From the IMG/VR virus record IMGVR_UViG_3300037294_000399, positions 1 through 64,000 of that record: a stretch of 64,000 bases of DNA, one strand, 5' to 3'. Every line of letters starts with the position of its first letter. Position 1 is the first letter of the stretch. The notes under the pieces are model-generated. The model was not told where the DNA came from, ran no database searches, and saw nothing but the letters and a program-made list of their open reading frames with translations. A program made the position numbers and the translations under genes. The stretch is from a virus. Of this stretch, positions 3,918 to 49,153 are shown one piece after another.

Positions 3918-3925
3918 TACCTTTG
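3918..3925 (+). promoter_or_regulatory. Promoter -7 element for DNA ligase
   Basis: TACCTTTG, with a TTGG about 20 nt upstream inside the end of the HD gene. It decides the ligase start as the ATG at 3947, not the TTG at 3923 that lies inside the promoter. Confidence 0.7.
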
Positions 3926-3946
3926 TATCAACAAAACAAAAAACAT

Positions 3947-4681
3947 ATGAAAATTAAAGACATTTTTGACGAGATTGCTGCTGAAGGTGGTACTAACCAA
4001 AAAATGGTTATTTTAGCTAAATACGCTGACAACGAATTGTTAAAACGAGTATTATATTTGGCAAACTCTAAGAGAGTTAAATTTTACATTAAACGTGTTC
4101 CAGAATACGTTGATGTTAGGAATAAAATCTCCTTGGATGACGCATTAGATGAATTATCAGTGATTAGTAATAGAACACTTACAGGTAGTGCTGCCGTGGC
4201 TCACTTAGTTGATTTATTGTCAATAACTGAACCAGAAGATGCTTATATCTTAGAACGTATCATCGAAAAAGATTGTAAAATAGGTATGGGTACCTCAAAT
4301 ATGAACAAAGTGTTCAAAAACCTTATTGAAGATACACCTTATATGGGTGCCGTATCGTTTGATGAGAAGAAAGCACGCAAGTTGTTTGAGAAAGGTGCCA
4401 AAGGTTATTCACAAGTTAAGATGGATGGTCGTTACTGCAACGCAACAATAGTTAACGGTGAAGTTTATTTGGAAAGCCGCCAAGGTGAACCAACAATCAT
4501 CACTGGTGCAAAGTTGATTGACGATTTAGCTAATTTGAATGAAGTGGTTCTTAATGGTGAATTGACCATGGATGGTTCAAAAGATATTGTATTAAAAATT
4601 GGTGAAATTATAAATATTGATGGGGTTGAGTGTAATGGAGATGAAATATTAGAAAAATTTAATAAAACCATTAAAAATTAA
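3947..4681 (+). CDS. ATP-dependent DNA ligase, N-terminal part
   Basis: 244 residues matching the first half of T4-gp30-type ligases. It has an all-helical N-terminal region, motif I 'VKMDGRY' at about residue 153 (adenylated lysine) and motif III 'LNGEL' near residue 203. After 'LTMDG' the ligase homology stops; a 34-residue tail of unrelated sequence precedes the TAA. The remaining motifs are encoded at 5744-6583 beyond an HE gene. The two proteins may assemble as a split enzyme. 'TTGACCATGGATGGT' at this break recurs with one mismatch in the second half. Confidence 0.85.
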   Translation: MKIKDIFDEIAAEGGTNQKMVILAKYADNELLKRVLYLANSKRVKFYIKRVPEYVDVRNKISLDDALDELSVISNRTLTGSAAVAHLVDLLSITEPEDAYILERIIEKDCKIGMGTSNMNKVFKNLIEDTPYMGAVSFDEKKARKLFEKGAKGYSQVKMDGRYCNATIVNGEVYLESRQGEPTIITGAKLIDDLANLNEVVLNGELTMDGSKDIVLKIGEIINIDGVECNGDEILEKFNKTIKN

Positions 4682-4710
4682 ACAAGTAATCCGAACAATT
4701 AGATTTTATT

Positions 4711-4726
4711 AGATATTTATAATAAA
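4711..4726 (+). promoter_or_regulatory. ATATTTAT-class promoter of HE gene
   Basis: AGATATTTATAATAAA, 9 nt before the ATG at 4735. One of the best matches to the shared HE upstream motif. Confidence 0.6.
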
Positions 4727-4734
4727 AGAATATT

Positions 4735-5736
4735 ATGTATGTCTGTTATTTAATAAAATATAGTGGTGATAAACTACCAAGATTCTATATCGGGTCAACC
4801 TCATTAGATAAAATAAAAAATGGTTATCGTGGTTCAGTAGTTTCAAAAAAATATGGTAAAATTTTTAAAAATGAATTAAAAACAAACCCTCTTTTATTTG
4901 AATATGAGATATTAAGTGAACATACAACCAGAGAAGAAGCTTTAGAAGCTGAATTAATTCAGCAAAAGAAGAACAATGTTGTTAAATCAAAAGATTTTAT
5001 TAATGAATCATACGCATCTGTTAATGGAATGTTTGGTAGAGATGTTTCGGGTGAAGTGAATCCTATGTTTGGTAAAAAACATAGTGAAAAAACTAAGAAA
5101 ATACTCAGCGAAAAACGAGGTAACTTACTAAGATATAGTTTAACTGACGAACATAAATTAATTATTAGTAAAACACATAAAGGTAAAATTGTTAGTGAAG
5201 AAACAAAAAGTAAAATAAGTAATAAAAAAAATGGTACCTTTACTGCTATTGATGAATCTAGAAATTATTTTAATATTGGTAAAAATGATGAGAGGTATTT
5301 AAACGGTGAATTATCTGGTATGACTGTTGGATTTGTTGTTGTTAAAGATATTAATGGTAATAAATTATTAGTTGGTGTTAATGATGAACGTTATTTAAGT
5401 GGTGAATTAGTTCATATTAATAAAGGTAAAGTTATGAGTGATGAAACTAAGGTTAAAATATCCGAATCAAGTAAAGGTAAAATAATAAGTGAAGGGTGTC
5501 GTAAAAAAATATCCGAAGCACATAAAGGTAAAATTAAAGGTCCGTTGAGTGAGGAAATTAAAATTAAAATATCAGAAGCTAATAAAGGTAGAGTTATGAG
5601 CGAAGAAACTAAACAAAAGTTAATTATTAGTAAAACGGGGATGAAATATATTGAACGAATTTGCCCATATTGTAAAAAAGTAGGTCGGGGTGGAAATATG
5701 TTTAGGTATCATTTTGATAATTGTAAATTAAGATAA
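4735..5736 (+). CDS. GIY-YIG homing endonuclease splitting DNA ligase
   Basis: 333 residues. The GIY-YIG module is N-terminal ('CYLIKYS...FYIGSTS'). A long middle has at least six NUMOD3-type units ('MFGKKHSEKTKK', 'SEETKSKIS', 'SDETKVKISESSKGK' and so on) that wrap DNA in this family. A C-terminal 'CPYCKKVGRGGNMFRYHFDNC' is a C2HC zinc finger. It lies between the two ligase fragments and is the likely cause of the break. Confidence 0.9.
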   Translation: MYVCYLIKYSGDKLPRFYIGSTSLDKIKNGYRGSVVSKKYGKIFKNELKTNPLLFEYEILSEHTTREEALEAELIQQKKNNVVKSKDFINESYASVNGMFGRDVSGEVNPMFGKKHSEKTKKILSEKRGNLLRYSLTDEHKLIISKTHKGKIVSEETKSKISNKKNGTFTAIDESRNYFNIGKNDERYLNGELSGMTVGFVVVKDINGNKLLVGVNDERYLSGELVHINKGKVMSDETKVKISESSKGKIISEGCRKKISEAHKGKIKGPLSEEIKIKISEANKGRVMSEETKQKLIISKTGMKYIERICPYCKKVGRGGNMFRYHFDNCKLR

Positions 5737-5743
5737 AAATATT

Positions 5744-6583
5744 ATGGTGGAGTTTAAAAAAATTAAAAGGGTTACGAAAAATGAAGATGGTAGTGTAACA
5801 TTGACAATGGATGGTGTACCTCGTTATGAGTCTAACGGTATCATAGCATCAATCATTGATATCTGCGGGAAACGTGAGTCTAGGACTAGTGAAGAAAATA
5901 TCAAAAAAGTCTTAACTTTTGAAGACAAGCATGGTAGTTTTGAGGATGCTTTGGTTAAAATACGTTACACTGTTTGGGATATGATTACTATTGATGAGTA
6001 CAATACTACTAAATCAACTACACCATACAATGTAAGACTTAAAAATCTTTCAGAAACGTTATCAACTATCCAAAACGATAATGTTATGGTGTCAATCATT
6101 GAAAATAGAGAGGTTAATACCTTTGAAGAAGCAATGGAGCACTTCAAAGAAATGCTAGGTCGTGGTGAAGAAGGTACTATCCTTAAAGCACAAACTGGTG
6201 AGTGGAAAGATGGTAAACCAACATGGCAAATCAAACTTAAGTTGGAATTGACATTAGATTTGATGATTACTGGTTTTAATTACGGCACTAAAGGTACTAA
6301 AAATGAAAACGTTGTTAGTTCGTTTAATGCTATGACATCATGTGGTTTATTGAAAACTAGACCACAAGGATTGAAAGAAGATTTAATGAAAGAAATTACA
6401 GAAAGACAAGATGAGTTGTTAGGTACAATCATCGAAGTTAAATGTTCTGGTCTTTCATTTGACAATACTGGTGCTTATTCGTTGTTATATCCAGCGTTTA
6501 AACATTTCAGAGACGATAAGGGTGTTGCCAACTCTTTGGAAGAATGTATTGACATTCAAAATGCGGCTTTAGGTTTATCTTAA
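5744..6583 (+). CDS. ATP-dependent DNA ligase, C-terminal part
   Basis: 279 residues. From 'VPRYESNGII' onward it matches the second half of T4-type ligases, with 'IRYTVWD', motif IV 'GEEGTILKAQTG' and motif V 'WQIKLKLELTLD', then the OB-fold region. The first 24 residues ('MVEFKKIKRV...LTMDG') are extra; they end in the same LTMDG that closes the upstream ligase homology. Joined at that pentapeptide the two pieces form a full ligase. No intron core is visible between them. Confidence 0.85.
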   Translation: MVEFKKIKRVTKNEDGSVTLTMDGVPRYESNGIIASIIDICGKRESRTSEENIKKVLTFEDKHGSFEDALVKIRYTVWDMITIDEYNTTKSTTPYNVRLKNLSETLSTIQNDNVMVSIIENREVNTFEEAMEHFKEMLGRGEEGTILKAQTGEWKDGKPTWQIKLKLELTLDLMITGFNYGTKGTKNENVVSSFNAMTSCGLLKTRPQGLKEDLMKEITERQDELLGTIIEVKCSGLSFDNTGAYSLLYPAFKHFRDDKGVANSLEECIDIQNAALGLS

Positions 6584-8288: not shown

Positions 8289-8497
8289 CATACCAATTTT
8301 TATATTTGTAAAAATCTTTATTGGTTAATCTAGTAATAATTCGTTTATTGGTAATGTTTTCATAAAGTTTGGTATAACATCCATATATGAATGGCAAATA
8401 GAGGAAGGGACTATATTTGAAGAAGATTATGTCAAAAACGTAGATGAATACGTATTCACTTTAGATGAATGGTTTGAAAAAAATAAAAAACATAAAA
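8289..8497 (+). pseudogene. Insert between RNA ligase halves, decayed ORF
   Basis: No intact HE is present. One frame from about 8330 to 8523 stays open and looks coding ('FIGNVFIKFGITSIYEWQIEEG...'), but it lacks an ATG. It may be the tail of a lost HE or part of the element that split the ligase. No promoter or group I intron core seen. Confidence 0.4.
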
Positions 8498-9334
8498 ATG
8501 GAAAAGAAAATAAAAAATATTAGAGAAATTAAAACATCTGACAACGCTGGTTTTGCTTTCTTTGTTGAAGCAAACAAAGAAACATTTATTGATTTGATGA
8601 ACCAAGTAAAAACTGAAACTGGTTTGGATTTAGTAACAAACACTATTAGCATTTATGGTGAGTGGTGTGGTGGAAACATCCAAAAGGGTGTTGGTATCAC
8701 CAATTTAGAAAAATCTTTCTTTATTTTTGGTGTTAAGGTAACACCACATACTGAAAATAAAGAAGAATTAACAGAAAACCCAGCGTATTGGGTTGATTAT
8801 AGTTACTTGGAAGCAAGTGATAAAAAAATATATAACATCGATAATTTCAAAACCTTTACTATCGATATCGATTTCAATATGCCACAATTGGTTCAAAACC
8901 AATTGTCTGAAATGACAATCGAGGTTGAAAATGAATGTCCAGTTGCCAAATCTTTTGGTTTCTCTGGTATTGGTGAAGGTATTGTTTGGTCATGTGGCTT
9001 TAAAGGTGTTGTTAATAGGTTCAAAGTAAAGGGTGAAAAACACTCTTCTAGTAAGGTAAAAACACTTGCCGCTGTTGATGTTGAAAAATTGGAGTCTATA
9101 CAAAAATTTGTTGACTATGCTGTAACTAAAAGTCGTTTTAACCAAGCACTTGAAAATGTTTTCCCAAATAATGAACCAATCGACACCAAAAAATTAGGTG
9201 ATGTTATCAGATGGGTGGTTAACGATGTTATCAAAGAAGAAATGGATACTATGGTTAAGAATAAACTTGAACCAAAAGAAATTAACAAATACATTTCTGT
9301 TAGCGTTAGAGATATGTTTTTTAAATTGGTTTAA
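8498..9334 (+). CDS. RNA ligase (Rnl2-like), C-terminal part
   Basis: About 278 residues from the ATG at 8498 (another ATG lies at 8465). Ligase homology begins at 'SDNAGFAFFV' and includes motif III 'SIYGEWCGG', motif IIIa 'FFIFGVKV', motif IV 'EGIVW' and motif V 'FKVKG', followed by a helical C-terminal domain. With the upstream fragment all six nucleotidyltransferase motifs are represented. Whether the halves reassemble is unknown. An RlaP-like partner is encoded at 14620. Confidence 0.8.
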   Translation: MEKKIKNIREIKTSDNAGFAFFVEANKETFIDLMNQVKTETGLDLVTNTISIYGEWCGGNIQKGVGITNLEKSFFIFGVKVTPHTENKEELTENPAYWVDYSYLEASDKKIYNIDNFKTFTIDIDFNMPQLVQNQLSEMTIEVENECPVAKSFGFSGIGEGIVWSCGFKGVVNRFKVKGEKHSSSKVKTLAAVDVEKLESIQKFVDYAVTKSRFNQALENVFPNNEPIDTKKLGDVIRWVVNDVIKEEMDTMVKNKLEPKEINKYISVSVRDMFFKLV

Positions 9335-14619: not shown

Positions 14620-15813
14620 ATGAAACAAATAACACACGAATACTTAGTAGAAAATGGTTTAATACTTTTTGAAACCATCGTTGGTTCACAAGCATACGGT
14701 ACACAAACTCCAACATCAGACATCGATAAAAAATTTGTCTATATATTACCTATGGATTCAATTTTAGGTACTGGTTATGTTGAACAAATAAATGTAGATA
14801 AAGATTACGTTGGTTGGGAGATTAGACGTTTCCTAGAACTTATGGGTTCAAACAATCCAACGGTTCTTGAACTTCTTAATAGCCCAGAAGATTGTATTGT
14901 ATCAAAACATGAGCTGTTTGACCTTATTCTTGCACACAAAGAAGATTTTATTACAAAAATTTGTAAAGATTCATTCGGTGGGTATGCAAGACAACAAATC
15001 AAGAAAGCCAAAGGATTGAATAAAAAACAAAACTGGGAAAAAGATAAAGTAACTCGAAAAGATTTACTAGATTTTTGTTACATTGTTGATGGTGAAAAAA
15101 CTATCCCATGGAAATCTTGGAATTGTGATAAATATGATGAAAAGTATATTGGTGCTGTTAATCTACCTAACGCTAGAGATGTATATGCATTATTTTATGA
15201 TAGTGTTGCAGAAATGTTACAGTCTGAAAAATATGCTGAAGATTTAAGACAAGTTTATAAAGAAACCCTTAAAAAAGCTGGTAAACCTATGGGTCACCGT
15301 TATAAAGGGTTGGTTAAAACAGGTGAAGGAGCAAACGCTGCTGAATCAAATCAATTACGTCTTTCATCAATACCAAAAGGTGAAAAAAGTATCTGTAATT
15401 TAGTTTACAATAAAGATGCTTACACCACACATTGTAAAGACTACAAAGAGTATCAAGAATGGTTAGAAAACCGTAACGAAACTCGTTATGTTGAAACACA
15501 GGAACATGGACAACGAATTGATGGTAAAAATATGATGCATTGTATTAGACTTATTCGTATGGCTCAAGAAATTGGTAGAGGGGAAGGCGTTCAAGTTCGT
15601 AGACCAGATGCTGAAGAACTATTATCGATTAGACGTGGTGAAGTTGATTTAGAACAACTTATTGATATGGCTGACAAAGCTATTGAAGAAATGGACTCAA
15701 TCTTTGATAATTCAGATTTACCAAGCAAACTTAATAGTGGCATCATCGATGCTCTGTTGGTAAATATTAGAAGAGACTTTTATAACTTGCCAATATCGGC
15801 AACTAATATTTAA
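14620..15813 (+). CDS. RlaP/YcgL-like nucleotidyltransferase
   Basis: 397 residues. 'GSQAYGTQTPTSDID' is the GS-x9-DxD signature of the polymerase-beta nucleotidyltransferase superfamily, in the form seen in the RlaP/YcgL group, which is often linked to RNA ligases in RNA-repair loci. The DxD aspartates bind metal. The following gene starts 4 nt later. It may modify RNA ends together with the Rnl2-like ligase; that link is inference from family habit. Confidence 0.75.
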   Translation: MKQITHEYLVENGLILFETIVGSQAYGTQTPTSDIDKKFVYILPMDSILGTGYVEQINVDKDYVGWEIRRFLELMGSNNPTVLELLNSPEDCIVSKHELFDLILAHKEDFITKICKDSFGGYARQQIKKAKGLNKKQNWEKDKVTRKDLLDFCYIVDGEKTIPWKSWNCDKYDEKYIGAVNLPNARDVYALFYDSVAEMLQSEKYAEDLRQVYKETLKKAGKPMGHRYKGLVKTGEGANAAESNQLRLSSIPKGEKSICNLVYNKDAYTTHCKDYKEYQEWLENRNETRYVETQEHGQRIDGKNMMHCIRLIRMAQEIGRGEGVQVRRPDAEELLSIRRGEVDLEQLIDMADKAIEEMDSIFDNSDLPSKLNSGIIDALLVNIRRDFYNLPISATNI

Positions 15814-23259: not shown

Positions 23260-23976
23260 ATGGGATTAAAAGATTTATTTATCGTTAGTGATGAAAAACC
23301 TATCGATAAACCAGTACAAGAACCTGTGAAACAATCTGCTCCAAGCACGACAAAGTTTCCTAGTTCTACACCTAAAACGGAAGAAACGACTTCAAATCCG
23401 TTTAGTTCATTCGGTTTTGGTAGTTCACCAACACCTACTTATCAAGCTGCAACTGTAAGCAATGAAGTATTAGCTAAAACCTTAGAAATGTATGAAGCTG
23501 GTTTTGATTCCCTTAACCAACCAGGATACGACTTCTATGAGTTTTTCAAAACTGTAATGGCTGGTGGTGCTGACAACCCAGCAATCTACGGTATGGCTTT
23601 CGGTATGGGTAGTGCAATGGATAAAACTATTACCAAAGACAAATTATTGATGCAGTCTGAATTTTATATTACTGAAATAAACAAAGTTTACAATGACTAT
23701 GTTGCTAAAGGTAATGGTAAAAGACAAGAAGTTATCAACCAAAAGAATCATGAAAACGAATCATTATTAGGTGAATTGAATTTAATGAGACAACAATTAG
23801 AACAACTTCAAGTTCAAATTTCTGACCGTGAAAACAAACTATCTGTAATTGATAGCAAATATGGTCCAATCTTAAATGAAGTTGAAACTAAAATTACCGC
23901 TAATGATTTAGCAAAACAAAAGATAGTTAGTTCTATCGAACAAGTTAAAAACGGAATTATTAATAATTTAAAATAA
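23260..23976 (+). CDS. Pro/Ser-rich coiled-coil protein of ABC operon
   Basis: 238 residues. Residues 10-65 are low-complexity and rich in Pro, Ser and Thr ('PSSTPKTEETTSNPFSSFG'); the middle is a compact helical domain, and 155-238 is a coiled coil. No signal peptide, so cytoplasmic. It begins a tight run with the membrane coiled-coil protein and the ABC transporter. Role unknown, perhaps an adaptor. Confidence 0.65.
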   Translation: MGLKDLFIVSDEKPIDKPVQEPVKQSAPSTTKFPSSTPKTEETTSNPFSSFGFGSSPTPTYQAATVSNEVLAKTLEMYEAGFDSLNQPGYDFYEFFKTVMAGGADNPAIYGMAFGMGSAMDKTITKDKLLMQSEFYITEINKVYNDYVAKGNGKRQEVINQKNHENESLLGELNLMRQQLEQLQVQISDRENKLSVIDSKYGPILNEVETKITANDLAKQKIVSSIEQVKNGIINNLK

Positions 23977-23987
23977 AAAAAAGAGAT

Positions 23988-25118
23988 ATGCAAACTCAAA
24001 CTCAAACAAGGACATCTACTTTAAATGCAAATTTATCGGAGTTGCCAATTTTAAAACACTTTAACCAAAACGAAATCTCAACCAAAGTTGATACGTTTAG
24101 AAAAGGTGAGAAAAACATGTTCTGGTTCTTTAAATTAGCTGCACTTATTGGTGTTGGTTATTTAACTTGGACATATGTGTTACCGCCAGTATTCCAAGCA
24201 ATTGGACAAATGTTAGCAATTGCGGCTACCGCAGTAATGATTGTTGCGGGTGTTATTATGGCCCCAGTAATTGTTAAAGGTATTCGTTTACTTACTAGAG
24301 CGATTCACAAATCACTTATTAAGTATGACCCATTTGCTCAGTTAGAAATTGAAAGACAAAAAATGCTTGTGAATCAAACAACATTCAGAGTTGCTAAAGG
24401 GAACATTGTTCAATTAAAACAAGAAATGGAAATTGAAGCTGATAGGTCACAAAAAGAAGCTGAAAGTGGTCAAACAAGAGTAATCGCTTTGCAAGGTAAA
24501 GCTGAGAAGTTAAAATTTTCCATGGATGAAATGATTAAATCACAAGGTGTTGCTGCTAAAGGTGAAGATGAGTATGTTAACATGGCTGCTGAATTACAAA
24601 AAGTACTTGCAGAAGCACAACGTGTTGCTAACAAATACAACCAATCAAAAAACTTCGTTCAAAAGTACGGTACTCGTGCTAATGTAATGAAAAAAATGGG
24701 TCAAAAATTAACCCTTGTTGAAACTGCGATGGATATTAAAATCCAAGACTTTGATGCAACTATTGATATGTTGAAAAAAGACTACGAGTTCGGTCAAAAA
24801 TCTAATGCTGCAACAACTGCCGCTAAGTCTGCAATGGGCTTCACAAAAGGCTGGGAGTTTGATTATGCCTTGGATGTTGTTACATCTACGATTGCTGCTG
24901 ATATCGCAATCACGGCTGGTAACTTGAAAGATATTGAAAGTATTACAAGCAACTACACGTTAGATTCTGACGAGTTGTATGCTAACTTGAATGCAGTTGC
25001 TGATAAAATTAAAATTGGTACTGATATCATTCCAGATGCTAGTCAGTATTCAAACCCAGAGTACACTTTGTCATCAAGTGACAAATTAAAATCTGGTGGA
25101 TTTGGTGACATGTTCTAA
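23988..25118 (+). CDS. Membrane coiled-coil protein of ABC operon
   Basis: 376 residues. Two transmembrane segments (about 42-64 and 68-92) follow a 40-residue soluble start. Residues 110-260 form a long coiled coil, somewhat like PspA/TelA-type proteins. The end is 'SSDKLKSGGFGDMF'. Most of the protein is cytoplasmic. It starts 11 nt after the previous gene, so the two are coupled and may form a membrane scaffold. Confidence 0.65.
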   Translation: MQTQTQTRTSTLNANLSELPILKHFNQNEISTKVDTFRKGEKNMFWFFKLAALIGVGYLTWTYVLPPVFQAIGQMLAIAATAVMIVAGVIMAPVIVKGIRLLTRAIHKSLIKYDPFAQLEIERQKMLVNQTTFRVAKGNIVQLKQEMEIEADRSQKEAESGQTRVIALQGKAEKLKFSMDEMIKSQGVAAKGEDEYVNMAAELQKVLAEAQRVANKYNQSKNFVQKYGTRANVMKKMGQKLTLVETAMDIKIQDFDATIDMLKKDYEFGQKSNAATTAAKSAMGFTKGWEFDYALDVVTSTIAADIAITAGNLKDIESITSNYTLDSDELYANLNAVADKIKIGTDIIPDASQYSNPEYTLSSSDKLKSGGFGDMF

Positions 25119-25329
25119 GAAATATTAGATAAAAAACTGTTCGAGTAGCTATTGCGTCTTATCAACCGATTGTAAAGTAGTGGACAAAATATATACGGGA
25201 TTGCTGAGCCTAAATGAGTAAGAAGGAAGTCATAAGAGTTTTAAACCGATAAGGGTAGTTTCTCCGATGGCGAAAAAAAAAAAAGAAAAAAAAAATGACA
25301 AAATGTTTGGTAGATTAAAAAAGAATATG
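25119..25329 (+). other. Non-coding gap with structured look
   Basis: No frame is convincing. The stretch 25140-25280 is less AT-rich than coding sequence around it, so a small RNA or riboregulator for the transporter is possible. Confidence 0.3.
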
Positions 25330-25337
25330 TACCTTTG
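25303..25337 (+). promoter_or_regulatory. Promoter of SBP-OmpA gene
   Basis: TTTGG near 25303 and TACCTTTG at 25330-25337. Confidence 0.7.
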
Positions 25338-25384
25338 TCATGTTAAATTAAATAAAGTAAATTTTATAAACTAAAAATAAACAA

Positions 25385-27199
25385 ATGGGAAGAATTTTAA
25401 AACAAGCTAAATTAACAACTTTAGCTGAAAGTGTAATCGTAGCGTTAGGTGTAATCTTAATCTGTGGAATCGTTTATATGGTATCTCCTGGGTTACGAGT
25501 TGAAGTTTCAAAACAATTAACTGGTCTAGAATTAAATAGTGACGAGTTAAACAATGTGACGAGTGGTGCTAAATTACCGTTACCATCTACACAACCATCT
25601 ACCGCTGTTGCGAATCAAGGACTTATTCGTATTGCAGAATATGCTTGGAATGGTAACTCTGGTATGATTGTAGCAAATGGTGGACCACGTACAACACAAG
25701 GGTCTCTTATGGAAGCTGCTGGTGTTAACCTTGAAATCGTAAGACAAGATATGGTTGGTGGGTTACGTGATATGCAAATAAAATTCGTTGAAGAATATGA
25801 TAAAGGTTTTGCTTATCCAAAATCAGACAAATCAGCTTGGGGTGTTAGTATAATGGGTGACGGTGTTCCGTTCTATATTACTACAACACAAAAAGCGTTA
25901 GATGAAAAGTTTGGTAAAAACAAATATCATGTACAAGTTATCGGTGCTTACGGATTATCTTATGGTGAGGATAAATTAATTGGTCCAAAAATTTGGAAAG
26001 AAAACCCACAATCAATGAGAGGTGCTGTAGTTTCTTCTGTAATTGGTGATGGTGACTGGGTTGTTGCGTGTAACTATGCGTTTGCTAATAAAGTACCAGT
26101 AAATCCAGACCCAACAACTTACGATGCAGATGCCTTGAATTTTTTCCCATCACAAGACGATGACTACATCAACTCAGTTAAAGAATTAATCAAATCTCAA
26201 AAAACAGGGTTTATAGTTCCTTTGAAAGAAGTTAAAGATGGTAAATTAACTGGTAAGACAGTAAATAGAAAAATTGATGGTGCAACTACTTGGACTCCTG
26301 GTGATAAGATGGCGTTTGATGCGTTGACTGGGTTTACCGATGTAGTTTCAACTAAAGAGTTCGTTAACCAAATGGCTACTACTTTAGTAGTGATTAAAGA
26401 GTGGGCTTTGCAACATGAAAAAGAAGTTGTGTCTATCTTAAAACAAACTTATACTGCAACTAATCAAATTAAGTTATATGATGAATGGGCTGTAAAAGCT
26501 TCTGAAGCCGTAGCTAAAACTTATGACTTTGAAACACCAGCTTATTGGTATAAAATGTTTAAAGGTCAAAAAGGTACTAAAGATGGTTTAGATTATAATA
26601 TTGGTGGTACACGTGTCTTCAATTATGCTGATGCTATGCAATATTACGGAATTACTGATGGTAACAACCGATACAAAGCAGTTTACAATCAAATCTCTAC
26701 TTATTTGACTGACTTGAACCCAATGGGTTTCAATGAATCAAACCCTAATGGTGTAGTAGCTTATGAAGATGCAGTTAACTTATATTTCTTAAAAAGTGTT
26801 ACCGATGTTGCGGTAGGTAAAGCTGAAAAAATTAACTACGATGGTAATAAGACTAAAGTATTAGCTAGTGGTCAATGGAACATAAACTTTGCAACTGCAA
26901 GTACGTCAATTCAAGGTTCGGATAAAGACTTAGAGGCCATATACAACTTATTAATGCAAGCTGAACAAGCCAAATTGAAAATTGTTGGTCATACCGATAA
27001 CGTAGGTGATTCTGGTTCTAATCTAACATTATCAAAAGGTCGTGCTAATTCAGTTGTTGAGTGCTTAATTAATAGAGGTATTTCTAAAAATCGTTTCCAA
27101 TTGGTTGATGGTAAAGGTGATGCTTCTCCAATTGCGACTAATGCAACTCCAGCTGGTAAAGCTAAGAACAGACGTGTGGAAATCACATTGTTAGACTAA
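25385..27199 (+). CDS. Substrate-binding protein fused to OmpA domain
   Basis: 604 residues. An uncleaved N-terminal membrane anchor (about 12-33) is followed by a periplasmic solute-binding fold of the NMT1/SsuA/TauA type (about 80-450; 'WGVSIMGDGVPFYITT', 'GDWVVACNYAF'). The C-terminal 110 residues are an OmpA domain with 'KIVGHTDNVGDSGSNLTLSKGRA' and 'NRRVEI', which binds peptidoglycan. It would tether the receptor between inner membrane and cell wall. Permease and ATPase follow. The ligand cannot be told from sequence. Confidence 0.85.
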   Translation: MGRILKQAKLTTLAESVIVALGVILICGIVYMVSPGLRVEVSKQLTGLELNSDELNNVTSGAKLPLPSTQPSTAVANQGLIRIAEYAWNGNSGMIVANGGPRTTQGSLMEAAGVNLEIVRQDMVGGLRDMQIKFVEEYDKGFAYPKSDKSAWGVSIMGDGVPFYITTTQKALDEKFGKNKYHVQVIGAYGLSYGEDKLIGPKIWKENPQSMRGAVVSSVIGDGDWVVACNYAFANKVPVNPDPTTYDADALNFFPSQDDDYINSVKELIKSQKTGFIVPLKEVKDGKLTGKTVNRKIDGATTWTPGDKMAFDALTGFTDVVSTKEFVNQMATTLVVIKEWALQHEKEVVSILKQTYTATNQIKLYDEWAVKASEAVAKTYDFETPAYWYKMFKGQKGTKDGLDYNIGGTRVFNYADAMQYYGITDGNNRYKAVYNQISTYLTDLNPMGFNESNPNGVVAYEDAVNLYFLKSVTDVAVGKAEKINYDGNKTKVLASGQWNINFATASTSIQGSDKDLEAIYNLLMQAEQAKLKIVGHTDNVGDSGSNLTLSKGRANSVVECLINRGISKNRFQLVDGKGDASPIATNATPAGKAKNRRVEITLLD

Positions 27200-27216
27200 G
27201 AATAAATATAAATTAA

Positions 27217-27250
27217 AAATCCTCAGAGAAATCTGGGGATTTTTTTTGTA
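27217..27250 (+). terminator. Rho-independent terminator
   Basis: AATCCTCAG pairs with CTGGGGATT, followed by T8. Confidence 0.85.
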
Positions 27251-27280
27251 AAAAGATTTGGAAGTTCGAATTAAATTTCG

Positions 27281-27288
27281 TACCTTTG
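27281..27288 (+). promoter_or_regulatory. Promoter of permease-ATPase pair
   Basis: TACCTTTG with TTTGG about 22 nt upstream; next ATG at 27313. Confidence 0.75.
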
Positions 27289-27312
27289 TCTTATAAATTT
27301 TAAAACAATAAA

Positions 27313-28083
27313 ATGAAAAGATTATTTAAACCGTTTGAGCGACTTAAAGGTTCTAGTACAACAACAATACTAGTTTCTTGGTTAGTTATCTTATTTGTGT
27401 TTTGGGGTGTAAATAGCTTAGGAACAACAAACATGTTCCCAACACCAAAACAAGTACTACATGGATTACAAAATTTATGGTGGGAAGGTCTCATTGTTCA
27501 TTTGGGTAGTTCAATTGCGTTGTGTGGTCAAGCAGTATTTATTTCAATAGTGATTTCATTACTATTTGCTTATACGTCAGCAATTCCATTTTTTAAACCA
27601 GTAGGTACCTTTATATCTAAGCTTAGATATTTGCCATTGACGGGTATTGCGTTTTATTTAGCTATAATAATTCAAGATGCTAGAAATCTTCAAGTATGGG
27701 TTCTTGTAGTGTTTATGACAACATTCTTAACTACTGGTCTTATGCAAATGATTAAAGATATACCAGAAGAAGAATTTGACCACGCTAGAACACTTGGGTG
27801 TAACAGATGGGAAACACTTTGGGAAGTTGTAATTAAAGGTCGTATTGACTACGTATTTGAGTTAGTAAGGCAAAACTTAGCTATTGTGTGGATGATGCTT
27901 GTAACTGTTGAATCTATTCTTGTAGCTGCTGGTGGGTTAGGGTTCCTAATTAAAAACAATGATAAGTTAGGTGATGCTGGTAAAGTAATTGCTTTGCAAA
28001 TAATCATAGTAGTGGTAGGGTTGTCTTTGGACTTCATCATCACAAAATTGAGAAAATTAATCTTTAGATATTCAAACTATTAA
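27313..28083 (+). CDS. ABC importer permease
   Basis: 256 residues with five to six transmembrane helices. The cytoplasmic EAA loop is 'EFDHARTLGCNRWETLWEVVI' minus its ends, the coupling helix that docks on the ATPase. It belongs to the binding-protein-dependent inner-membrane family (SsuC/TauC-like). The ATPase gene begins 3 nt after the stop. Together with the OmpA-anchored receptor it makes a complete importer. Confidence 0.88.
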   Translation: MKRLFKPFERLKGSSTTTILVSWLVILFVFWGVNSLGTTNMFPTPKQVLHGLQNLWWEGLIVHLGSSIALCGQAVFISIVISLLFAYTSAIPFFKPVGTFISKLRYLPLTGIAFYLAIIIQDARNLQVWVLVVFMTTFLTTGLMQMIKDIPEEEFDHARTLGCNRWETLWEVVIKGRIDYVFELVRQNLAIVWMMLVTVESILVAAGGLGFLIKNNDKLGDAGKVIALQIIIVVVGLSLDFIITKLRKLIFRYSNY

Positions 28084-28086
28084 TAT

Positions 28087-28908
28087 ATGAGTTATAAAGC
28101 AGAACAAACGTTATTATACGTTAAGGACCTAAGTGCTGGTTATGATGGGAAGATTATCCTTAAAGATATATCATTTGAGGAAAAAGACATCGTTAGAGAA
28201 GGGGTAGAATCGACAGGGCAAATAATTGCATTTATTGGTCGCTCTGGTCGTGGTAAATCTACATTGTTTAAAACACTTACTGGTTTATTAAAGCCACTAA
28301 CTGGACAAATGTTGATATCAGATATGTCAACAGATGAAATGGATGACGCTAAAAAATTGTCTGAGGGTGATATAGGTTTTGTGGACCAAAAGTATACGCT
28401 TTTCCGTCACAAAACAATCATACAGATTTGTGAATATGCGTTGCGTAAATCAACACTTACAAAAGAGGAAAAGAAAGTGCTTATCACAGAGTACTTGACT
28501 GATTGGGGTCTTGAAGAACACAAAGATAAATATTCATGTGAGTTATCTGGTGGTCAAAGACAAAGAACAGCAATCATTGAGCAAATGCTTTCGTCTAAAC
28601 GTTTTATGATTCTAGACGAACCATTTTCTGGTTTAGATGTTGGGAATATTGAGAAAGTAAAAGAGTCTTTCAATCGAATTAGCGCTACCAACGAATATAA
28701 TACGATTATTTTTTCAACACATGATTTACGTCTTGCTGCTGAATTGGCTGATAGTATTTACATCGTTGGTTTTCCAGAAGGCACTACTGATTATTCTACT
28801 ATCGTTGGTCACTACGACTTAAAAAAACTAGGATTAGCTTGGCAACCATATGGTGATGGACATACAAGGTTAGTTGAAGAAATGAAACAATTGTTATTGC
28901 ATTCATAA
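28087..28908 (+). CDS. ABC importer ATPase
   Basis: 273 residues. Walker A 'GRSGRGKS', Q-loop 'VDQKY', signature 'LSGGQRQR', Walker B 'RFMILDEP' and H-loop 'STHD' are all intact, so it should hydrolyse ATP. It pairs with the permease at 27313. No self-standing regulatory domain. Confidence 0.92.
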   Translation: MSYKAEQTLLYVKDLSAGYDGKIILKDISFEEKDIVREGVESTGQIIAFIGRSGRGKSTLFKTLTGLLKPLTGQMLISDMSTDEMDDAKKLSEGDIGFVDQKYTLFRHKTIIQICEYALRKSTLTKEEKKVLITEYLTDWGLEEHKDKYSCELSGGQRQRTAIIEQMLSSKRFMILDEPFSGLDVGNIEKVKESFNRISATNEYNTIIFSTHDLRLAAELADSIYIVGFPEGTTDYSTIVGHYDLKKLGLAWQPYGDGHTRLVEEMKQLLLHS

Positions 28909-33736: not shown

Positions 33737-34302
33737 ATGGATATTAAAAAAAAAAATTGAGAAGTGCTTTATTAAAAGAAGGTAAACACAAAACACATAA
33801 AAATGAGTATGGTTGTCTAATGGTTTATTTAGATGTTACCAAAGAAGATTGGAATGAGTTACAGGACATGATTGATGATGATGACTTATATGTTGATAAA
33901 GAAGACCCAAGCTACGGTAGAGAGAATGAACCACATGCAACGGTTTTATTTGGTTTTCATGCAGACGTTAAAGATGTAGATATAGAAAAAGAGATTTATA
34001 AGGTTAAAACACCTAAAATTGGTTTTAAAGGTATATCAGCATTTAGCAATGAAAAGTTTGATGTGTTGAAGTTTGATGTTGATAGTGAAGATATGCATAA
34101 AATGAATTCAAAATTTAAGCAATTCCCACACACAAATAATTTCCCAGATTACCACCCACATGTTACTATTGCGTATTTAAAACCAAAAACTGCTGATAAA
34201 TACATAAAGAAAATGAAAGGTATGGAAGAAATGCCAATCAAACTAGATAAGTTGGTTTATTCAAAACCAGATGGTGATAAAAAAACCTACGAATTAAAAT
34301 AA
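33737..34302 (+). CDS. 2H phosphoesterase (Acb1-like candidate)
   Basis: About 188 residues. HxT motifs 'EPHATVLFGF' and 'HPHVTIAYL' lie about 80 residues apart, the defining 2H pair. Phage Acb1 proteins of this fold cut CBASS cyclic nucleotides; other members process RNA ends. The ATG at 33737 is separated from the body by an 11-A run that breaks the frame by one base, so an open frame as given starts only at the TTG at 33757. A terminator follows. Confidence 0.75.
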
Positions 34303-40869: not shown

Positions 40870-41874
40870 ATGGAAATTAAAAACTATAAAGAAGAAATAA
40901 TTAAAAATGCAGAAGTTGGTGTTGTTGTGGGGAGATTTCAAACAAACCGATTACATACAGGACATATTGACTTGATTAGCCACGTCCTATCAAATCATAA
41001 AAAAACTGTACTTATCCTAGGTGTGTCTAGAGTACAAAACACCAAGAAAAACCCTTTGGATTTTGCTAGTCGTAAAGCTATGATTCAAAAATTGTTTCCT
41101 AGTTTAATGATTTTACCAGTAATGGACCAAAGATACGATGAGAAATGGAGTTCAGAAATTGATTCAGCTATTTCTATGCCGTTTGGTGAAAAGAAAACAG
41201 TTATCTATGGTAGCCGTGATTCATTTATTCCTCATTACAAAGGTAAGTTTCAAGTTATTGAGTTAGAAGCTATTCCTTACCATAACGCCACAAACATTAG
41301 AGCAGATATTGCTAAAGAAACTATTGACTCTACTGATTTTAGGTCTGGTGTTATCTACTCAGCATTCAATCAAAGACCAGTTTCTTATCCAACAGTTGAT
41401 ATCTGTGCATACAACGATGATGGTGAGATTCTTATGGGTAGAAAACCTAACGAGAAGTATTGGAGATTCGTTGGTGGGTTTGTTGACCCGACAGATGAAA
41501 GCTATGAAAAAGCAGCTTTGAGAGAGTTTCATGAAGAAACTGGTGGTAATTGTGTTATCAGCGACTTAAAATATATCTTAAGTCACAGAGTAAAAGATTG
41601 GAGATATGCCAAAGAAGAGTCTGGGATAATGACTACTTTATTCTTGGGGCGCAGAAATATGGGTTACGCAAAAGCTAGTGATGATATCGCAGATGTTAAA
41701 TGGTTTCCAATTAGGGAGTTCAGCAACTTTGATACTGTTAGAACTAAAGTAATGCCAGAACACCGTGAAATGATGTTAGCTTTGGTTAACAAAGTGTACA
41801 GCGAAAAACTTATACCAAATATTGGTGAAAGATTAGCTGAAAGAACTGATAATGTAACTTACATTGGTGAATAA
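40870..41874 (+). CDS. nadM: Bifunctional NMN adenylyltransferase/Nudix
   Basis: 334 residues. N-terminal nucleotidylyltransferase: 'VGRFQTNRLHTGH' (HxGH) and 'NIRADIA' near residue 140. C-terminal Nudix hydrolase: box 'GGFVDPTDESYEKAALREFH' plus EETGG. The first domain makes NAD+ from NMN and ATP. The second, in bacterial homologues, cleaves ADP-ribose to AMP and ribose-5-phosphate. It directly precedes NAMPT; together they form the two-step NARP2-type pathway. The N-terminus is a diverged second copy; see the stump at 39943. Confidence 0.9.
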   Translation: MEIKNYKEEIIKNAEVGVVVGRFQTNRLHTGHIDLISHVLSNHKKTVLILGVSRVQNTKKNPLDFASRKAMIQKLFPSLMILPVMDQRYDEKWSSEIDSAISMPFGEKKTVIYGSRDSFIPHYKGKFQVIELEAIPYHNATNIRADIAKETIDSTDFRSGVIYSAFNQRPVSYPTVDICAYNDDGEILMGRKPNEKYWRFVGGFVDPTDESYEKAALREFHEETGGNCVISDLKYILSHRVKDWRYAKEESGIMTTLFLGRRNMGYAKASDDIADVKWFPIREFSNFDTVRTKVMPEHREMMLALVNKVYSEKLIPNIGERLAERTDNVTYIGE

Positions 41875-41894: not shown

Positions 41895-44418
41895 ATGGGT
41901 TTACAAAAAAAAGTAATTGAAAAATTAGAAACTGCAATAGAAAACAAAGATTGGGTGTCTATTGAAGATATTCAAAAGTATCTTAGCAAAGCATTAACAA
42001 AACCGAACAACTTGATTTTGTGTTCAGATGCTTACAAATATTCACATCACAGATTCTATGGTGGTGAAATGACCAAGATGGTATCTTACTTGGAATCAAG
42101 AGGTGGTAAATTCTCTGAGACAGTATTCTACGGATTACAAATCTTCTTAAAACAATACTTAGAAGGTGTTGCCATTACGAAAGAAGAAGTTGATGAAGCA
42201 TTTGACTATTTAGGTACAAAGCACGGTGTGTTTGGCCGTGACGATGTATTCGATAGAACAAAATTCGATTATATTATCGAGATGTATGATGGTAAATTAC
42301 CTATCAGCCTAAAAGCAGTTCCAGAAGGTTAACAAATGTAGCCATTCATACTAGTAATAGTATGTCTAAAGAAATCTAATTGCTGGGAACCCCTTAGAGC
42401 CTTTAACACTACAACGTAGATAGCAATATCAAGCGTGAATGTTTGAAAAGATAAAGGATTGGGAAATCAGCAGCGAAGTTTCTAAATTTAATTTCAATTA
42501 ATTAGTGCGTTTTTAAAAGTTTATGATATTTATTAATAAACGCATTAATCATGAGAGAGTATAAAAAAGGGAAAGAATCACCATTGTTTAAAGATTTAAC
42601 TGGTGAAAAGTTTGGTAAATTAACAGCTAAAAACTACATTTACGATGACACAAAGAAATATAAAAAACATATGTGGATTTGTGATTGTGATTGTGGTAAT
42701 GAAGCTAAAGTTAGAACCAATGAATTAACAAAGGGTGAAAGAACACAGTGTAAACAATGTTCAATCAATGAAGTATCAAAAACTAGAACAAGACCAGATA
42801 ATGGTGCATTAATAACAAGAGTTATTAAACAGTATAAAGCTGGTGCTAAAAGAAGAGGTTATGAATTCTTATTAACAGATGAAAAACTAAAGGAATTAAT
42901 TTTTTCAAATTGTTATTATTGTGGTGAAGAACCAAAAATAAATAAGGGTGAAGAACGTTATTTTAGAGGTGGTTTAGAGTTTAAAAGAAATGGAATTGAT
43001 AGATTGAATAATAAAATTGGTTATACAAATGAAAATGTTGTTACTTGTTGTGAAACATGTAATAGAGCTAAAATGTGTTTAGAGCATGATGATTTTTTAA
43101 CCCTTATTAATAAAATATACTTAAATTTAGAAAAACGTTCAACGACTATCCCACAAGGGAGTACAGAACAAGCTAATGGTTCTGGAAATGGTTTTGACCC
43201 TAGTAAATAGGGTTTTGATATAGTCTAGTCTTTATCTAAAGATAAAGCAGTTCGTAAGAGAACGTATTCAACTGTTGCGAGTTGAGTAGAATGTAAACGT
43301 CAGTAGTTGGAACTAAAAATGTTTTGTTCGTTATCGAATCTTTAGATGAGAACTGCGCATGGTTAACCAATTTTTTAGAAACTATCTTGTTGCAAGTATG
43401 GTATCCAATTACGGTTGCTACACTTTCAAGAGAAGTTCGTAAAATCGTAGATGCTAGTTTTCAAAAAAACACATCATATGATACTGGGTTAAGAGAGTTT
43501 CTGGTTGATTACGTGTTGAATGACTTCGGTTTCCGTGGTGTATCGTCTGTACAATCAGCTGGTATTGGTGGGTCTGCTCACTTGGTAAACTTTAGAGGTT
43601 CTGATACAATCATGGCATCTAAATACATCAGAGATTACTACAATACAGAAACAGTTTATGGGTTATCTATCCCAGCAACTGAACACTCTATCATGACACT
43701 TAAAGGTGAAGAAGGTGAATTGGAAATGATGAAACGAGTACTTACAACATTCCCTACTGGGTTAGTTGCGTGTGTATCTGATTCATACAATATCTTTCGT
43801 GCATGTTCTGAGTATTGGGGAACTGAATTGAGAGACTTAGTACTATCTCGCCCATCAGAACCAGGAAATCAACTAGTTATCCGTCCAGATTCTGGTGACG
43901 TGTTAATGACATTGAAAGAAATTTTCACTATATTATTCGACAAATTCGGTTACACAGTAAACGATAAGGGTTATAAAGTGTTACCACCACAAGTTCGTGT
44001 GATTCAAGGTGATGGTGTTAATCTAGATTCAATTAAAGAAATCTACGCATTGTTAGAGGAAGAAAAAATATCACCAGAAAACTTAGCTTTAGGTATGGGT
44101 GGTAAATTATTACAAGCAGTGGACCGAGACACATGTGCATTTGCTACCAAAGCTTGTACAGCCGTAGTTGACGGTGTTGAAGTTGAAGTACAGAAAAATC
44201 CTACCGAAATGGACGAGAATGGGAATTTAACAAAAAGTTTCAAAAAGTCTAAAAAGGGTAGATTGAAGTTGGTAAAAACTGATAACGGTTATATTACTTT
44301 AACTTCTAAAGATGAAGGATTCGAAGAAGCTAAGGATGAACTCGTAGAGGTTTTCCGCATGGGAGATATTCTTAAAGAGTGGTCTTTTGAGGAAATCCGT
44401 GAGAGAGCCAAAATTTAA
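41895..44418 (+). CDS. nampt: Nicotinamide phosphoribosyltransferase, interrupted by intron
   Basis: Exon 1 is 41895-42329 and exon 2 is 43300-44418; together 517 residues. The join gives 'KAVPEG-SVVGTKNVLF', matching the vertebrate enzyme at this spot. 'CSDAYKYSHHRFYGG', 'ETVFYGLQIFL', 'WYPITVAT', 'DFGFRGVSS' and 'VIRPDSGD' are NAMPT signatures. It converts nicotinamide and PRPP to NMN for the adjacent NMNAT. Without splicing, exon 1 ends at a TAA in the intron. The 3' end is duplicated at 45779. Confidence 0.92.
42525..42540 (+). promoter_or_regulatory. ATATTTAT-class promoter inside intron
   Basis: GATATTTATTAATAAA, 11 nt before the HNH ATG at 42551; allows HE expression separately from NAMPT. 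Confidence 0.6.
42551..43210 (+). CDS. Intron-encoded HNH endonuclease
   Basis: 219 residues. Zinc pairs 'CDCDCGNEAKV...CKQC', then 'CYYCGEEPK', 'NGIDRLNNKIGYTNENVVTC' and 'CCETCNRAKM' form an HNH/NUMOD4-like intron endonuclease. It would cut intron-less NAMPT genes to spread the intron. Confidence 0.88.
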   Translation: MREYKKGKESPLFKDLTGEKFGKLTAKNYIYDDTKKYKKHMWICDCDCGNEAKVRTNELTKGERTQCKQCSINEVSKTRTRPDNGALITRVIKQYKAGAKRRGYEFLLTDEKLKELIFSNCYYCGEEPKINKGEERYFRGGLEFKRNGIDRLNNKIGYTNENVVTCCETCNRAKMCLEHDDFLTLINKIYLNLEKRSTTIPQGSTEQANGSGNGFDPSK

Positions 44419-48126: not shown

Positions 48127-48425
48127 AAAAATTAATTATATTATTTGCGTTTTTTACGCTATTATTAATAACTGGATGTGCTGATGTTTCACAAATCCAA
48201 TATATGAATCCTAGTGAGCATGTATATGGCTTTTGGGGTGGTACATGGCATGGTATGATTACGATACCTTCATTTATCGGTAGTCTTATCTGGAATGATG
48301 TAGCTATCTATGCTGTTAATAATAACGGTGGGTGGTATGATTTCGGTTTCATCGGTGGGTTTTATTTAATAGTTAAAGTTATCAAAACCATGATTCTTGG
48401 GGTTAAATCGGCTGTTCAGAAGTAA
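48123..48425 (+). CDS. Lipoprotein-like membrane protein, 100 aa
   Basis: N-terminal signal with lipobox 'LLITGC'. Two hydrophobic stretches follow, with Gly/Trp-rich 'YGFWGGTWHGM'. This resembles small host-derived 'DUF' lipoproteins. Overlaps the sirtuin start. Role unknown. Confidence 0.6.
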   Translation: MKKLIILFAFFTLLLITGCADVSQIQYMNPSEHVYGFWGGTWHGMITIPSFIGSLIWNDVAIYAVNNNGGWYDFGFIGGFYLIVKVIKTMILGVKSAVQK

Positions 48426-49153
48426 TGAAAAAGAAAGTAGTTATATTTACAGGTGCTGGAATAAGCAAAGAATCTGGTGTTGATACATTCAGAGATTCGG
48501 TAGATGGCCTTTGGGAAAACCATAAGATTGAAGAAGTTTGTACTCTTGATGGTTGGAGAAAAGACCGTGAGAAAGTACTTAACTTTTACAATGACCGCAG
48601 AAGACAAATGCCAAGTGTTGAACCTAACAATGCACATAAAGCATTGGCTAGGTTAGAAGAAGACTTTGATGTAACTATCGTTACACAAAATGTTGATGAT
48701 TTGCACGAAAGAGGTGGGTCCACTAACATCATTCACTTGCATGGTGAGTTAACTAAAGCTAGGAGTTCTTATTTAACTGGTAATCTTTTAAAAGTTAAGT
48801 TAGATTCTATTGACATTGGTTATTCTGATATTAATATTGGTGATAAATGCGAGAAGTATGGTGCACAATTAAGACCACACATTGTATGGTTTGGTGAATA
48901 TCCTTTTGATATAAATAAAGCTTATGATGCTTTTTTAACAGCTGATATTGTAATAATTGTTGGAACTAGTTTACAAATTGGTTATACCTTAAGTTTTTTT
49001 GATAACCTACCGAAAGGTTTTAACGTAATATACATTGACCCTAACCCTAGTCATGATTTAGACACACTTGATTTAAACATTGAGTACGTAGAGAAAAGTG
49101 CTGTTGAAGGGGTGACAGAAATTGTGGAAAGAATTATTAACGAACAAAATTAA
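48425..49153 (+). CDS. Sirtuin (Sir2-family) NAD+-dependent deacylase
   Basis: 242 residues, full Sir2 core: 'FTGAGISKESGVDTFRD', 'VTIVTQNVDDLHERGG', catalytic His in 'IHLHGEL', 'RPHIVWFGE' and 'VGTSLQI'. It resembles the class III (CobB/SIRT5) type. The zinc cysteines seem missing; only 'GDKCEKYG' remains. It uses NAD+ to remove acyl groups from lysine, making nicotinamide that the phage's NAMPT can recycle. Confidence 0.9.
   Translation: MKKKVVIFTGAGISKESGVDTFRDSVDGLWENHKIEEVCTLDGWRKDREKVLNFYNDRRRQMPSVEPNNAHKALARLEEDFDVTIVTQNVDDLHERGGSTNIIHLHGELTKARSSYLTGNLLKVKLDSIDIGYSDINIGDKCEKYGAQLRPHIVWFGEYPFDINKAYDAFLTADIVIIVGTSLQIGYTLSFFDNLPKGFNVIYIDPNPSHDLDTLDLNIEYVEKSAVEGVTEIVERIINEQN

What the first reader, a model, noticed from the sequence alone, without database searches (positions are those of the whole stretch)
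23260..28908. Complete ABC importer with a peptidoglycan-tethered receptor in a phage
Five genes: a Pro/Ser-rich coiled-coil protein, a membrane coiled-coil protein, an NMT1-like solute receptor fused to a membrane anchor and an OmpA domain, a permease and an ATPase with all motifs. A receptor fixed to the wall and to the membrane is unusual, and full importers are rare in phages. It may feed infected cells or sense an envelope state.
Basis: partly seen in the sequence, partly recalled or inferred. Interest (0 to 1): 0.85.

Follow-up and report, generated by a model that had tools for sequence, protein, structure and literature searches.

The report
Phage-borne PspA-linked envelope transporter operon
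Giant viruses of Bacteroidota bacteria carry an intact five-gene set, also found in bacterial chromosomes, that pairs a wall-anchored nutrient importer with a probable membrane-shaping protein, and it may be used to keep an infected cell's envelope working.

Summary
In detail: five genes on one strand (23260-28908) encode a coiled-coil protein (A), a membrane coiled-coil protein (B), a TM-receptor-OmpA fusion (C), a type I importer permease (D) and an ATPase (E). ATPase motifs, EAA loop, receptor motifs and the OmpA peptidoglycan-binding Asp/Arg are intact and under purifying selection.

It is not unique. The same A-B-C-D-E order occurs in dozens of huge-phage contigs from two deep groups, in a 462-kb and a 735-kb published phage, and in some Bacteroidota chromosomes (between atpG and dut in most Flavobacterium copies).

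The main reinterpretation is that B belongs, transitively, to the PspA/IM30 (bacterial ESCRT-III-like) family. Bacterial operons joining a TM-bearing PspA/Snf7 homologue, AAA+ ATPase, ABC ATPase, permease and PBP-OmpA protein were predicted in 2024 (Ravi et al., PMC11237479). The phage cassette is a version without the AAA+ partner; I found no description of it in phages in the papers searched.

Most likely it couples uptake of an unknown small solute to inner-membrane stabilisation during infection. The anatomy is well supported; role, ligand and direction of transfer are not. New variant of a known (predicted) kind, of moderate to high interest.

The parts
23260..23976 (+). Gene A: 238-aa protein with a short conserved N-terminus, Pro/Ser-rich linker and C-terminal coiled coil; probable cytoplasmic adaptor (no family match)
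   Evidence: no Pfam hit; least constrained gene, median dN/dS 0.28; present in the same place in Flavobacterium (34-40% id) and in the 735-kb phage
23988..25118 (+). Gene B: 376-aa membrane protein (two hydrophobic helices, about 45-110) followed by a long helical hairpin (115-186, 194-284); remote PspA/IM30 (ESCRT-III-like) family member with a TM segment
   Evidence: model helices; homologue L061 hits PspA_IM30 at 9.8e-7; profile comparison: group-2 phage B vs PspA 91-94%, window-type B vs group-2 B 96-98%, coiled-coil controls mostly under 5%
25385..27199 (+). Gene C: 604-aa receptor: TM anchor 12-33, NMT1/SsuA-type substrate-binding fold about 78-480, OmpA peptidoglycan-binding domain 502-596
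   Evidence: D538 and R553 invariant in 63 of 63 sequences, SBP motifs MGDG, GED and WTPGD invariant or nearly so
27313..28083 (+). Gene D: 256-aa type I importer permease with EAA coupling loop (about 152-173)
   Evidence: BPD_transp_1 4.2e-11; EAA loop conserved in 76 sequences
28087..28908 (+). Gene E: 273-aa ABC ATPase: Walker A GRSGRGKST, Q-loop Q101, LSGGQ, Walker B D177-E178, D-loop, H212
   Evidence: ABC_tran 9.4e-26; G/S/G/G/K of Walker A, Q, SGG, DE and H invariant in 69 of 69 sequences

Best explanation
The five genes form one functional system: a phage-borne version of the bacterial 'PspA/Snf7-TM + ABC importer + PBP-OmpA receptor' operon. Receptor C sits in the inner membrane by its N-terminal helix and grips peptidoglycan by its OmpA domain; its NMT1-type domain binds a small solute that the D2E2 transporter imports with ATP (shown: intact parts and motifs; inferred: transport). 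On the cytoplasmic face, membrane-anchored PspA-like B, with coiled-coil partner A, lines or oligomerises at the membrane around the transporter (inferred from family). During the long infection cycle of a huge phage this assembly would hold the inner membrane to the wall, keep it sealed and energised, and supply a solute. The phage copies lack the AAA+ ATPase that follows the operon in Flavobacterium, so they either do without it or borrow the host's.
For: Fixed A-B-C-D-E order in 28 of 34 contigs of the first scan and 53 of 77 of the second, with further loci recovered by frame-free search, while flanking genes differ. Same order at about 23-33% identity in the 735-kb phage and in Bacteroidota chromosomes. 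Purifying selection on all five genes. Invariant ATPase, EAA, receptor and PG-binding residues. PspA/IM30 relationship of B. SBP fold of C. The bacterial operon type and a remodelling-transport link are proposed in PMC11237479.
Against: The PspA link of the window's own B is transitive: its direct profile comparison scores only 1.7%, and the structure search of a low-confidence model (pLDDT 62.9) gives no significant hit, only Vipp1 entries among weak ones. No ligand, expression or phenotype data. L034 carries C alone, so C may act without the rest. The AAA+ partner is absent from the phage records searched.
Confidence: 0.5

Rival explanations
1. Plain auxiliary metabolic importer: the cassette only brings a limiting small solute (sulfonate, thiamine-precursor, nitrate-like or other) into infected cells; A and B are accessory scaffolding and the OmpA domain just positions the receptor.
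For: Complete type I importer with intact receptor, permease and ATPase; receptor fold closest to TauA, NrtA, CmpA and thiamin-binding proteins; huge phages carry genes suggested to augment host metabolism (PMC7162821).
Against: A and B are kept in the same place in nearly all complete cassettes, in two deep phage groups and in bacteria, which a simple importer would not need. No neighbouring metabolic gene is conserved with it.
Confidence: 0.25
2. Envelope guard against competitors or host defence: the assembly alters or protects the inner membrane and wall so that superinfecting phages cannot inject, or membrane-damaging abortive defences fail; the transporter part senses or drives remodelling rather than feeding.
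For: PspA systems stabilise membranes under envelope stress (PMC11237479); wall- and membrane-tethered receptor; membrane and surface proteins of huge phages have been suggested to affect infection by other phages (PMC7162821).
Against: No direct evidence; bacterial chromosomes keep the same operon next to housekeeping genes, and the receptor motifs are strictly conserved, which suggests a constant ligand rather than an arms race.
Confidence: 0.15
3. Passenger: a host operon picked up by chance and decaying.
For: Patchy in Bacteroidota (7 of 297 genomes sampled in the phylum, 4 of 61 in Flavobacterium), so it is mobile.
Against: dN/dS 0.15-0.28 over high divergence, no frameshift in the window's cassette, catalytic residues invariant, deep diversity inside phages.
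Confidence: 0.02

Closest known systems
Bacterial PspA/Snf7-TM + AAA+ + ABC ATPase + permease + PBP-OmpA operons (Ravi et al. 2024, PMC11237479, e.g. OGG56892.1)
   Same: TM-bearing PspA-like protein, ABC ATPase, permease, solute-binding protein fused to OmpA, in one operon
   Different: Located in phage genomes; lacks the AAA+ gene; has the conserved coiled-coil gene A, which the section of that paper read here does not mention; B is much diverged from PspA
Flavobacterium chromosomal operon (F. terrisoli PT-3, Flavobacterium sp. WG47)
   Same: Homologous A-B-C-D-E in the same order at 34-63% identity
   Different: Sits beside the ATP synthase operon in most copies and is followed by an SpoVK/CbbX-like AAA+ gene; the phage copies do neither
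Type I importers of the Ssu/Tau/Nrt family with NMT1-type receptors
   Same: Receptor fold, EAA permease, ATPase
   Different: Receptor is held by a TM helix and a peptidoglycan-binding domain; two extra coiled-coil genes
PspA/Vipp1 (IM30) ESCRT-III-like proteins
   Same: Long helical hairpin, remote profile similarity
   Different: Integral membrane anchor; below the Pfam cutoff; no psp partner genes beside it
Huge phages LR756500 (462 kb) and LR756501/LR756503 (735 kb)
   Same: Carry the cassette
   Different: Records have no annotation; the main text of the Nature 2020 huge-phage paper does not mention a transporter

Membership tests
PspA/Snf7-TM - ABC - PBP-OmpA operon (PMC11237479) | ABC ATPase + permease + receptor fused to OmpA in one operon | tested here: met
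PspA/Snf7-TM - ABC - PBP-OmpA operon (PMC11237479) | PspA or Snf7 homologue with a TM segment | tested here: inconclusive
   met through relatives only: L061 PspA_IM30 9.8e-7, group-2 phage B vs PspA 91-94%, window-type B vs these 96-98%; direct tests of window B negative
PspA/Snf7-TM - ABC - PBP-OmpA operon (PMC11237479) | AAA+ ATPase partner (occasional: the paper says PspA is not always associated with one) | tested here: not met
   absent beside the phage cassettes and from the phage records searched, except one weak AAA match in G379; positive control G001 rang. Not a strict requirement, so this makes it a variant rather than excluding it
Type I ABC importer (NMT1/SsuA receptor class) | Walker A/B, Q-loop, signature, H-loop | tested here: met
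   69 of 69 sequences
Type I ABC importer (NMT1/SsuA receptor class) | EAA coupling loop in permease | tested here: met
   BPD_transp_1, loop conserved
Type I ABC importer (NMT1/SsuA receptor class) | NMT1-type two-lobed receptor | tested here: met
   structure match; homologue over NMT1_2 cutoff; window protein itself has no NMT1 HMM hit
Type I ABC importer (NMT1/SsuA receptor class) | binds and transports a defined solute | not testable with these tools
   needs binding and uptake assays
Pal/OmpA-like peptidoglycan binders | conserved Asp and Arg that hold diaminopimelate | tested here: met
   D538 and R553 in 63 of 63; residue roles from knowledge of OmpA-like domains

The most novel reading that the evidence does not exclude
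Two lineages of huge Bacteroidota phages use an ESCRT-III-like membrane-remodelling module, coupled to a wall-tethered ABC transporter, to control the host inner membrane during infection (for example against membrane-damaging defences or for superinfection exclusion), and phages rather than bacteria are the main reservoir from which Flavobacterium received it.
Probability: 0.15. Interest if true: 0.88.

Novelty: new variant of a known kind. Interest (0 to 1): 0.62.

Why it matters
An intact, selected importer joined to a PspA-like protein in many huge phages would show that such phages manage the host envelope and transport, not only its genome and translation. It also makes a predicted but, to my knowledge, untested bacterial remodelling-transport system testable, with Flavobacterium strains (PT-3, WG47) as subjects, and the phage version, lacking the AAA+ ATPase, is a natural minimal set for asking what the ABC part does for the PspA part.

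Tried and rejected
TelA/Ter-system reading of A and B: no TelA match in Pfam or NCBIfam, dropped. NAD-precursor ligand: the phage encodes NAD-salvage genes but about 12 kb or more away, and the bacterial operons are not next to such genes; not supported. Direct PspA tests on window B failed; the link rests on relatives. Scan with the 735-kb phage's C alone found nothing. L036 in the first tree had a branch length of 10 and was left out of the second. An early reading that phages simply took the operon from Flavobacterium (98/92) did not survive wider sampling: the Flavobacterium clade falls among several phage lineages, and phage monophyly is neither supported nor rejected (AU p 0.495). L170 is a Hymenobacter-like genome piece, not a phage, and was excluded. 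An attempt to reach Pseudomonadota through an E. coli locus failed; distribution outside Bacteroidota was not tested. Literature searches for a phage-encoded version found none; the Jug-phage paper has a pspA-like gene beside terD, a different context.

Full report
What is there. Five co-directional genes at 23260-28908 encode proteins of 238, 376, 604, 256 and 273 aa. I call them A to E. C has an N-terminal TM helix (12-33), a receptor-like middle and an OmpA domain (502-596); D is a BPD_transp_1 permease; E an ABC ATPase. D and E are 3 bases apart, and pattern scans show no promoter or terminator excess in the region. The record is an IMG/VR virus contig of 96,307 bases, with phage-type ligases, a polymerase-family protein, homing endonucleases and 21 predicted tRNA genes in the window.

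Receptor. Pfam finds only OmpA in the window's C, but the AlphaFold model (pLDDT 81.5) matches thiamin-, taurine-, nitrate- and bicarbonate-binding proteins, and the homologue in the 735-kb phage passes the NMT1_2 cutoff. Motifs that by family comparison should line the pocket (W88, N98-G100, MGDG 157-160, GED 194-196, DGD 222-224, WTPGD 303-307) are invariant or nearly so in 63 sequences from phages and bacteria; their pocket position is inferred, as model coordinates could not be inspected. OmpA residues D538 and R553 are invariant, so wall binding is likely.

Engine. Walker A, Q-loop, SGG of the signature, Walker B Asp-Glu and H-loop are invariant in 69 distinct E sequences, and the EAA loop of D is conserved in 76. 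Median pairwise dN/dS among phage copies is 0.28, 0.21, 0.16, 0.16 and 0.15 for A to E (many dS values are high, so these are rough).

The coiled-coil proteins. B has two hydrophobic helices then a long helical hairpin (low confidence). Window B has no family hit. Its homologue in a Hymenobacter-like genome (L061) hits PspA_IM30 at 9.8e-7 (29 bits, below the 33.9 cutoff). Profile comparison of group-2 phage B against Bacteroidota/E. coli PspA gives 91% (94% with the distant bacterial copies and the 735-kb-phage copy added); ATP-synthase b and phage A controls give under 5%; window-type B against these relatives gives 96-98%. One control was higher (group-2 A vs PspA, 37.5%), and only two of 15 members hit PspA_IM30 individually. 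I take B as a remote TM-bearing PspA/IM30 relative, probable rather than proven. A remains without a family.

Distribution. The first scan found 34 viral loci with C at 59-85% identity, 28 of them with all five genes in order. A wider scan found 121 viral stretches (77 loci kept), including a second group at 34-42% identity on contigs up to 529 kb; 53 of 77 read as ABCDE, and frame-free search recovered more members. The two scans overlap. Flanking genes differ among contigs, so the five genes are the conserved unit. Terminase_6N passed its cutoff in 10 of 24 of these records; the window's own record is a 96-kb piece without a match. Named matches are LR756500 (462 kb) and LR756501/LR756503 (735 kb). 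L022 is a mosaic: group-2-like A and B with group-1 C and D. L034 has C alone.

Bacterial counterparts. Flavobacterium terrisoli PT-3 and Flavobacterium sp. WG47 carry the same five genes right after atpG, followed by an SpoVK/CbbX-like AAA+ gene and then genes up to dut. Four of 61 sampled Flavobacterium and 7 of 297 sampled Bacteroidota genomes have C. Three more distant bacterial loci (L061-L063) have C and D with A- and B-type genes in the same order, E in two of them, and no matching AAA+ gene. The AAA+ protein is missing from the phage records searched, apart from one weak AAA match in G379, while the control genome rang.

History. In the wide tree, group-2 phages are sister to the distant bacterial copies and group-1 phages join the Flavobacterium copies. 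Flavobacterium copies are 82-100% identical to one another, phage-1 copies 42-84%, so the phage side is far more diverse. Whether phage-1 is one clade is unresolved (AU p 0.495), hence so is direction; transfer between phages and bacteria in some direction is the simplest reading of the tree.

Known or new. Ravi et al. 2024 (PMC11237479) report bacterial operons in which a TM-bearing PspA or Snf7 homologue and an AAA+ ATPase occur with ABC ATPase, permease and a PBP-OmpA protein, and suggest a link between membrane remodelling and solute transport. The window cassette is this kind minus the AAA+ gene, in phages. Reviews and surveys of huge and jumbo phages that I checked do not mention it.

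Mechanism. Shown: intact parts, co-conservation, selection. Inferred: solute uptake through C and D2E2; wall-membrane tethering by C; membrane support by B with A. Best overall reading: coupled uptake and inner-membrane maintenance during infection. Pure importer and envelope-guard roles are rivals.

Noticed in passing
window 3923-6583: ATP-dependent DNA ligase in two pieces (phrog_114 positions 83-302 and 302-519) with an HNH/homing endonuclease gene (4735-5736) between them: probably an intron or intein-like insertion.
   Followed up: no
window 40870-41874, 43324-44418, 48425-49153: NAD-salvage and NAD-use genes: cytidylyltransferase-Nudix protein, nicotinamide phosphoribosyltransferase (matching from profile position 134 only) and Sir2.
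   Followed up: partly
window 33757-34302: 2H phosphoesterase over the Pfam cutoff for anti-CBASS protein Acb1 (33.3 vs 27 bits).
   Followed up: no
window 8465-9334 and 14620-15813: RNA ligase and RlaP-type nucleotidyltransferase: RNA-repair genes near the tRNA array.
   Followed up: no
window 19719-19793 and 20614-20687: Two tRNA-like genes with odd anticodon loops (two-base 'tg' and four-base 'agac') in the tRNA array.
   Followed up: no
L022 6148-10642: Mosaic cassette: A and B of the group-2 (more PspA-like) kind beside group-1 C and D, evidence of recombination between phage lineages.
   Followed up: partly
L034 5401-9815: C stands alone, without A, B, D or E nearby, downstream of a protein that by eye looks TROVE/vWA-like.
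   Followed up: partly
L041 (MAG labelled Limnohabitans): The contig carries a Flavobacterium-type neighbourhood and its genome handle behaves as Bacteroidota, so the record's label looks wrong or the bin is mixed.
   Followed up: partly
L170 (IMG/VR 2627853892): Contig classed as viral is most like Hymenobacter-type bacterial loci and looks like a bacterial genome piece; its A reads in two overlapping ORFs.
   Followed up: partly
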